Shown here: piece by piece, positions 5,809 to 5,910 of the stretch | Numbering within the stretch: position 1 is the stretch's first letter | Layout of the letters: every line of letters starts with the position of its first letter | NCBI GenBank assembly: GCA_021160155.1 | Contig: JAGHDB010000204.1 | Span: 1 to 9,800 of the forward strand | Direction of reading: 5' to 3' | DNA length: 9,800 nt | From: Bacteroidales bacterium | Lineage (GTDB): Bacteria > Bacteroidota > Bacteroidia > Bacteroidales > UBA12481 | Made by a program: the position numbers and the translations under genes | The notes under the pieces: model-generated | Told to the model about the DNA's origin: nothing | The model's input: the letters and a program-made list of their open reading frames with translations, nothing else | The model's database searches: none

Positions 5809-5910
5809 TTACAAATGTATTACTTCCCCTATTGCGGCAGTTGCAGCTTCCATGATAGCGGCTACATAACCTCCCGGTCCGCTACCGATCAGGAGAACAT
5901 TAAATTTCAT
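5809..5910 (-). pseudogene. lpd: Internally deleted dihydrolipoamide dehydrogenase remnant, 33 codons
   Basis: The short frame encodes MKFNVLLIGSGPGGYVAAI followed by MEAATAAIGEVIHL and TAA. The first 19 residues are the N-terminus of a pyridine-nucleotide flavoprotein, with the FAD-binding GxGPGG turn and the Y-V-A-A-I typical of dihydrolipoamide dehydrogenase (E3 of 2-oxoacid dehydrogenases and the glycine cleavage system). The last 14 resemble the E3 C-terminus, where the family has H-P-T-x-x-E-A-I-x-E-A-A and often ends in I-H-I or I-H-L. About 420-430 codons are missing, including the redox cysteine pair and the catalytic His-Glu, so no enzyme can be made. The frame is kept across the junction. 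It lies 61 bases after meaB and one base before the uvrA GTG. An assembly collapse could produce the same picture. Confidence 0.75.
5854..5859 (-). other. Probable deletion junction in lpd remnant
   Basis: On the minus strand GCTATC encodes Ala-Ile at codons 18-19. Both the E3 N-terminus (G-Y-V-A-A-I) and the E3 C-terminal motif (E-A-I-x-E-A-A) contain Ala-Ile at this place, so the two ends could have shared this hexamer as microhomology. The junction position follows from family knowledge; no intact copy is in the window for comparison. Confidence 0.5.

What the first reader, a model, noticed from the sequence alone, without database searches (positions are those of the whole stretch)
5809..5910. 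A 33-codon fossil joins the two ends of dihydrolipoamide dehydrogenase
The frame reads MKFNVLLIGSGPGGYVAAI then MEAATAAIGEVIHL and stop. The first part is unmistakably a flavoprotein N-terminus with the FAD GxGPGG turn. The second resembles the extreme C-terminus of the same enzyme family. The simplest explanation is an in-frame deletion of about 1.3 kb inside an lpd gene that once headed uvrA. A shared GCTATC (5854-5859) is a candidate microhomology. Such a loss is tolerable only if another E3 gene exists elsewhere, which is common in Bacteroidota.
Basis: partly seen in the sequence, partly recalled or inferred. Interest (0 to 1): 0.72.

Follow-up and report, generated by a model that had tools for sequence, protein, structure and literature searches.

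The report
A 33-codon stub of lipoamide dehydrogenase
In an uncultured bacterium, likely of the order Bacteroidales, the 33-codon reading frame just before the DNA-repair gene uvrA matches only the two ends of the dihydrolipoamide dehydrogenase gene that relatives carry whole at that spot, so it is likely the inherited stub left by a large in-frame deletion rather than an assembly error, and its translation would at most hand ribosomes on to uvrA.

Summary
Observation confirmed. On the minus strand, 5910-5809 reads MKFNVLLIGSGPGGYVAAI-MEAATAAIGEVIHL-stop. The halves match the first 19 and last 14 residues of one gene: the 461-463-aa Lpd upstream of uvrA in 10 of 11 same-family genomes (the eleventh shows no orthologous uvrA). 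About 430 codons are missing in frame, with GCTATC at the junction.

The deletion is likely real and inherited. A search of about 5.8 billion proteins (candidates limited to short ones sharing words) returned one hit: a second 33-aa protein with the same junction and three different residues, from sources jgi, lgn and ena. None of the 120 listed Lpds has this N-terminus, while an intact UvrA about 99% identical to the window's was found.

One full E3 remains in the incomplete genome, between an E2 and an E1 gene; GcvP and GcvH remain too.

The stub stops 1 nt before uvrA's GTG. In 9 of 10 relatives lpd stops 0-6 nt before uvrA. If translated, the stub could still deliver ribosomes to uvrA (inferred); selection for that is unproven.

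The parts
5854..5910 (-). Codons 1-19 of the stub: Lpd N-terminus with the GSGPGG FAD turn
5809..5853 (-). Codons 20-33 and TAA of the stub: Lpd C-terminus
5854..5859 (-). GCTATC (Ala-Ile) at the junction, candidate microhomology
   Evidence: inferred as break point
4707..5807 (-). uvrA 5' piece, GTG start 1 nt after the stub's TAA
2968..4500 (-). uvrA 3' piece, in another frame (first listed start; the frame is open further upstream)
5972..7078 (-). meaB, the gene upstream of the stub
5911..5971 (-). 61-nt gap between meaB and the stub; no terminator-like or sigma-70-like site found in 5700-6100

Best explanation
The 33-codon ORF matches only the first 19 and last 14 residues of the full-length dihydrolipoamide dehydrogenase encoded upstream of uvrA in ten of eleven same-family genomes, so it is likely the inherited remnant of that gene after an in-frame deletion of about 430 codons rather than an assembly error. 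The deletion was probably one slippage or recombination event between short repeats encoding Ala-Ile near the two ends of lpd (inferred). It was probably tolerable because a second E3 gene, between an E2 and an E1 gene, remains (presence shown, sufficiency inferred). The product is not expected to be an enzyme, as more than nine tenths of Lpd is missing. Because the stub keeps a start codon and a stop 1 nt before uvrA's GTG, its translation would be predicted to deliver ribosomes to uvrA, as full lpd plausibly does in relatives (inferred: about 50% that it does so, about 20% that this is why the stub persists).
For: Both halves hit the two ends of one Lpd ORF. Full lpd of 461-463 aa upstream of the orthologous uvrA in 10 of 11 same-family genomes. 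A second 33-aa protein with the same junction and 3 different residues, from sources jgi, lgn and ena. None of 120 listed Lpds has the stub's N-terminus (best 16 of 19 residues), though an intact UvrA 98.9/99.2% identical to the window's pieces is in the same database. At position 27 both stubs have lost the aromatic residue found in 117 of 118 listed Lpds and in 10 of 10 relatives. A full E3 remains at C346. uvrA starts 0-6 nt after lpd's stop in 9 of 10 relatives, 1 nt after the stub's stop here.
Against: The DNA around P0003 could not be read, so its place before uvrA is assumed, and its organism is unknown. No reads could be mapped. The Lpd search listed only the best 120 of 8,000 scored. 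Change at conserved C-terminal sites is weak evidence of relaxed constraint: 3 of 10 intact relatives also depart from the consensus at one site, and G007's intact Lpd differs at position 21, one of the sites that differs in P0003. For a selected coupling role: the RNA at uvrA's start is not unusually folded (z +1.17), and a junction two bases shorter would also end at the uvrA start. The genome is 81.6% complete, so the E3 count is a lower bound.
Confidence: 0.87

Rival explanations
1. Assembly artefact: the chromosome carries full lpd and the assembler skipped about 1.29 kb.
For: Draft genome of 411 contigs; uvrA just downstream carries a frame break that is absent from an intact UvrA about 99% identical, so a local assembly fault is possible.
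Against: A second 33-aa protein with the same junction and different residues exists, from sources jgi, lgn and ena. None of 120 listed Lpds has this N-terminus. A 6-base repeat is short for an assembly collapse (general knowledge). Frame breaks are not more common in 119 kb of this genome than in 135 kb of relative G011.
Confidence: 0.05
2. Inert fossil: the same deletion remnant, but untranslated or without any effect on uvrA, persisting only because it is young or small.
For: A fresh deletion gives start, frame and spacing for free. No sigma-70-like site was found in 5700-6100, and the one match of the Bacteroidetes-type promoter pattern lies elsewhere. The uvrA start is not unusually folded. 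Two of three possible junction frames would keep the stop next to or across the uvrA start or 21 nt before it is the third case.
Against: The stub keeps its ATG, an open frame and the 1-nt spacing, and a second copy with 3 differences keeps an open frame of the same length; no terminator-like site separates it from meaB.
Confidence: 0.45
3. A small functional peptide selected for its own sequence.
For: The 19 N-terminal residues are identical in the two known copies.
Against: The whole sequence is explained by the two ends of Lpd. Only two copies are known: one from the protein search, and no other genome among 393 of the order gave a match over the whole length in the printed list, whose next best covers residues 1-24.
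Confidence: 0.04
4. Two independent deletions at the same repeat gave the window's stub and P0003.
For: Ala-Ile is encoded at both break points in 9 of 10 relatives, so the spot could be a hotspot.
Against: All 10 relatives with the locus keep the full gene. The two stubs share all 19 N-terminal residues, seen in none of 120 listed Lpds, and both lack the aromatic at position 27.
Confidence: 0.04

Closest known systems
Full-length dihydrolipoyl dehydrogenase (Lpd/E3, TIGR01350) encoded upstream of uvrA in the same family (G002-G011)
   Same: Same place, same first 19 and last 14 residues in outline, similar stop-to-uvrA spacing
   Different: About 430 of 463 codons missing; cannot reach the family cut-off (21.9 against 408.8 bits)
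Pseudogene made by internal in-frame deletion between short repeats (recalled as a common class)
   Same: Both gene ends kept, short repeat at the junction, another gene of the same function elsewhere
   Different: The whole remnant is still one open frame and a second copy with the same junction exists
Short upstream ORF that delivers ribosomes to the next gene (passages of PMC12548453)
   Same: Short ORF ending 1 nt before the next start codon
   Different: Derived from an enzyme gene; translation and coupling untested here

Membership tests
Dihydrolipoyl dehydrogenase (TIGR01350) | Full-length score over the curated cut-off of 408.8 bits | tested here: not met
   21.9 bits, profile 2-22 of 461
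Dihydrolipoyl dehydrogenase (TIGR01350) | N-terminal FAD-binding GxGxxG turn (motif recalled) | tested here: met
   GSGPGG in codons 9-14
Dihydrolipoyl dehydrogenase (TIGR01350) | Redox-active cysteine pair (motif recalled; relatives read GGICLNWGCIPTK) | tested here: not met
   No cysteine in the 33 residues; the motif is present in relatives
Dihydrolipoyl dehydrogenase (TIGR01350) | C-terminal His-Glu of the active site (HPHPTMSE region in relatives; recalled) | tested here: not met
   The stub begins again after that region
Internal-deletion gene remnant | Both ends of one gene joined, with full copies at the same place in relatives | tested here: met
   10 of 11 same-family genomes
Internal-deletion gene remnant | Deletion present in the DNA and not only in the assembly | tested here: inconclusive
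   A second protein with the same junction supports it; no reads could be mapped
Translationally coupled upstream ORF | Stop close to the next start codon | tested here: met
   1 nt here; 0-6 nt in 9 of 10 relatives
Translationally coupled upstream ORF | The upstream ORF is translated | not testable with these tools
   Needs ribosome profiling or a reporter
Translationally coupled upstream ORF | Downstream translation depends on translation of the upstream ORF | not testable with these tools
   Needs a reporter; folding shows no sign of an occluded uvrA start

The most novel reading that the evidence does not exclude
A metabolic enzyme gene was cut down to a dedicated ribosome-delivery leader: the 33-codon stub is kept in frame by selection because uvrA, with a GTG start in a phylum that hardly uses Shine-Dalgarno sites, still needs ribosomes terminating just upstream.
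Probability: 0.2. Interest if true: 0.55.

Novelty: new member of a known kind. Interest (0 to 1): 0.36.

Why it matters
It is an unusually clean record of how an operon gene can be lost: both ends kept, the same junction in two diverged copies, a second E3 still present. If the stub is needed for uvrA translation, it would show a route by which a dead enzyme gene becomes a translational leader, testable with one reporter.

Tried and rejected
Indel noise as the cause was checked with a codon-usage scan of 20 G000 contigs plus the window and C346 (119 kb) and of 20 G011 contigs plus L039 (135 kb). Strict setting: 1 event in G000 (the uvrA one) and 4 in G011, with 21 of 60 and 22 of 63 simulated one-base losses detected; nearly the same setting gave 1 and 3. 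Looser settings gave 10 and 16, then 24 and 33, and also flag the E1 gene on C346, so the scan is coarse. A first script failed and a second did not register the known uvrA break (0 and 1).

Loss of E3's users as the reason for losing lpd: rejected, since GcvP (972-codon frame) and GcvH are present. Whether G001 lost lpd too could not be judged: its best UvrA hit is 39% identical. The Bacteroidetes-type promoter pattern (recalled) occurs once in the window, at 8226-8258, not at the stub. Rfam: no match. Genome contigs gave no close relative of this locus, best MeaB identity 59% (that tool says near records may be left out). A search of 393 genomes of the order found no second stub in its printed list.

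Paper searches on lpd in-frame-deletion pseudogenes, short-ORF gene remnants, microhomology loss in Bacteroid*, leader-ORF remnants and lpd-uvrA coupling listed 1, 0, 0, 7 and 0 papers, none on point by title and start of abstract. Of PMC6728339 and PMC12548453 I saw passages only.

A first attempt to file was malformed in its fields and was returned.

Full report
WHAT IS THERE. The ORF lies on the minus strand, 5910-5809: ATG, 33 codons, TAA. Upstream on the same strand is meaB, whose stop ends at 5972, 61 nt away; downstream uvrA starts with GTG at 5807, one base after the TAA. The window is contig C73 of a 2.38-Mb, 411-contig, 81.6%-complete genome. The named genomes whose MeaB matches best (up to 59%) are mostly uncultured Bacteroidales or Bacteroidota, so the order Bacteroidales is likely, not shown.

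IT IS THE TWO ENDS OF ONE LPD. A search of 60 genomes, the window's own included, with the 33 residues gives N-half hits at the start and C-half hits at the end of the same ORFs, mostly of about 465 codons; 19 of 59 relatives show both in the printed, truncated list. The last 14 residues score 57 against relatives' Lpd C-termini, while 161,538 14-mers elsewhere in the fetched proteins reach at most 27 and 100,000 shuffles at most 39. NCBIfam's best match is lipoamide dehydrogenase, at 21.9 bits against a cut-off of 408.8. It is not an Lpd; it is a piece of one.

THE LOCUS IN RELATIVES. I took 20 stretches around Lpd hits and mapped the window's genes on them. Of 11 same-family genomes, 10 (G002-G011) have full lpd (461-463 aa) upstream of a uvrA that is 73.6-85.8% identical to the window's 5' piece. 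The eleventh, G001, shows no orthologous uvrA (best hit 39%). Of the 9 stretches from other families only G025's holds uvrA, about 3 kb from lpd. In 9 of 9 same-family stretches that reach far enough, a gene on the opposite strand lies just upstream of lpd; meaB is seen beyond it in 8. The one copy I tested is a PF00144 beta-lactamase-family protein of 380 aa. The window lacks this gene. From meaB's stop to uvrA's start is about 2,605-2,671 nt in those 8 relatives and 164 nt here. In G052, another family, lpd follows the end of the meaB match by about 180 nt, so the extra gene may have been gained by the others or lost here.

THE JUNCTION. Relatives read ...YV(A/T)AI-R... near the front and ...SE(A/G)I-M... 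near the back. Deleting from after the first Ile to after the second gives the stub's layout. Over the six bases before each break, 4 or more match in 10 of 10 relatives and all six in 1 of 10. The repeat is a fair candidate for the break, inferred and not shown.

IS IT REAL? A search of about 5.8 billion proteins with the 42-aa open frame gave exactly one candidate and one hit, P0003 (candidates must be 0.55-1.75 times the query's length and share words with it). It is 33 aa long, MKFNVLLIGSGPGGYVAAI-MGAAAAAMGEVIHL, on a 25,603-base contig, with sources jgi, lgn and ena. The junction is identical and residues 21, 24 and 27 differ. None of the 120 listed full-length Lpds (of 8,000 scored) has the stub's N-terminus; the best share 16 of 19 residues. 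A UvrA profile search found P0125, 945 aa and intact, 98.9% and 99.2% identical to the window's two uvrA pieces and beginning VKSDTHR, that is, at the same GTG. So what is probably the same species is in that database, and no full lpd of its own was seen in the list. Across 118 of the 120 Lpds (2 dropped by a length and motif filter), position 21 is E and 24 is A in all, and 27 is Y, F or L; P0003 has G at 21, the window T at 24, and both have a non-aromatic residue at 27. That fits sequence freed from the enzyme's constraint, but weakly: 3 of 10 intact relatives also depart from the consensus at one site, G007 at position 21 itself. No second stub appeared in 393 genomes of the order (printed list).

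TOLERANCE. One full E3 over the family cut-off remains, on C346 (494.6 bits), after an E2 with lipoyl and E3-binding domains and before an E1 alpha gene. Relatives have 1-4 E3s over the cut-off. G005 shows only the uvrA-linked one and the window's genome only the E2-linked one, so a single E3 of either kind may be enough (tentative, the genomes being incomplete). GcvP and GcvH are present, so users of E3 remain.

HOW IT MIGHT WORK NOW. uvrA starts 0-6 nt after lpd's stop in 9 of 10 relatives (the value for G004 read by eye); in G002 the start is over 200 nt away. Bacteroidetes hardly use Shine-Dalgarno motifs for initiation or reinitiation (PMC6728339, passages), and a short upstream ORF can serve only to deliver ribosomes to the next gene (PMC12548453, passages). 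The stub keeps start, frame and a 1-nt gap to a GTG, and no terminator-like site lies between meaB and uvrA's start, so if transcribed and translated it would act in that way. Against a selected role: the RNA at uvrA's start folds less well than most shuffles (z +1.17, 179 of 200 at least as stable), and the frame is not strictly needed, since a junction two bases shorter would end across the uvrA start and one base shorter 21 nt before it. I put ribosome delivery at about one half and selection for it at about one fifth.

VERDICT. This is very likely a real, inherited in-frame deletion remnant, of a known kind, with a modest and testable twist.

Noticed in passing
window about 4722 (minus strand), between uvrA pieces 5807-4707 and 4500-2968: uvrA is split by a frame break; an intact UvrA about 99% identical exists (P0125), so the break is either specific to this strain or an assembly error.
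   Followed up: partly
L001 (G000:C346) about 3461: The E1 alpha gene beside the one remaining full E3 also reads as two ORFs in different frames, both matching TIGR03182.
   Followed up: partly
window 5911-5971; compare L034 7701-8843: Relatives carry a PF00144 gene on the opposite strand between meaB and lpd (9 of 9 stretches that reach it upstream of lpd); the window has only 61 nt there, so this lineage may have lost two genes at one locus.
   Followed up: partly
G005 against G000: G005 shows only the uvrA-linked E3, the window's genome only the E2-linked E3: opposite choices of a single E3 within one family.
   Followed up: no
G001:C214, G002:C363, G003:C57, G004:C186, G005:C107, G006:C5, G009:C325, G010:C551: Eight relatives carry paired GcvH-like domains in neighbouring ORFs of about 560-600 and 230-250 codons, besides the plain GcvH; the window's genome shows only the plain one.
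   Followed up: no
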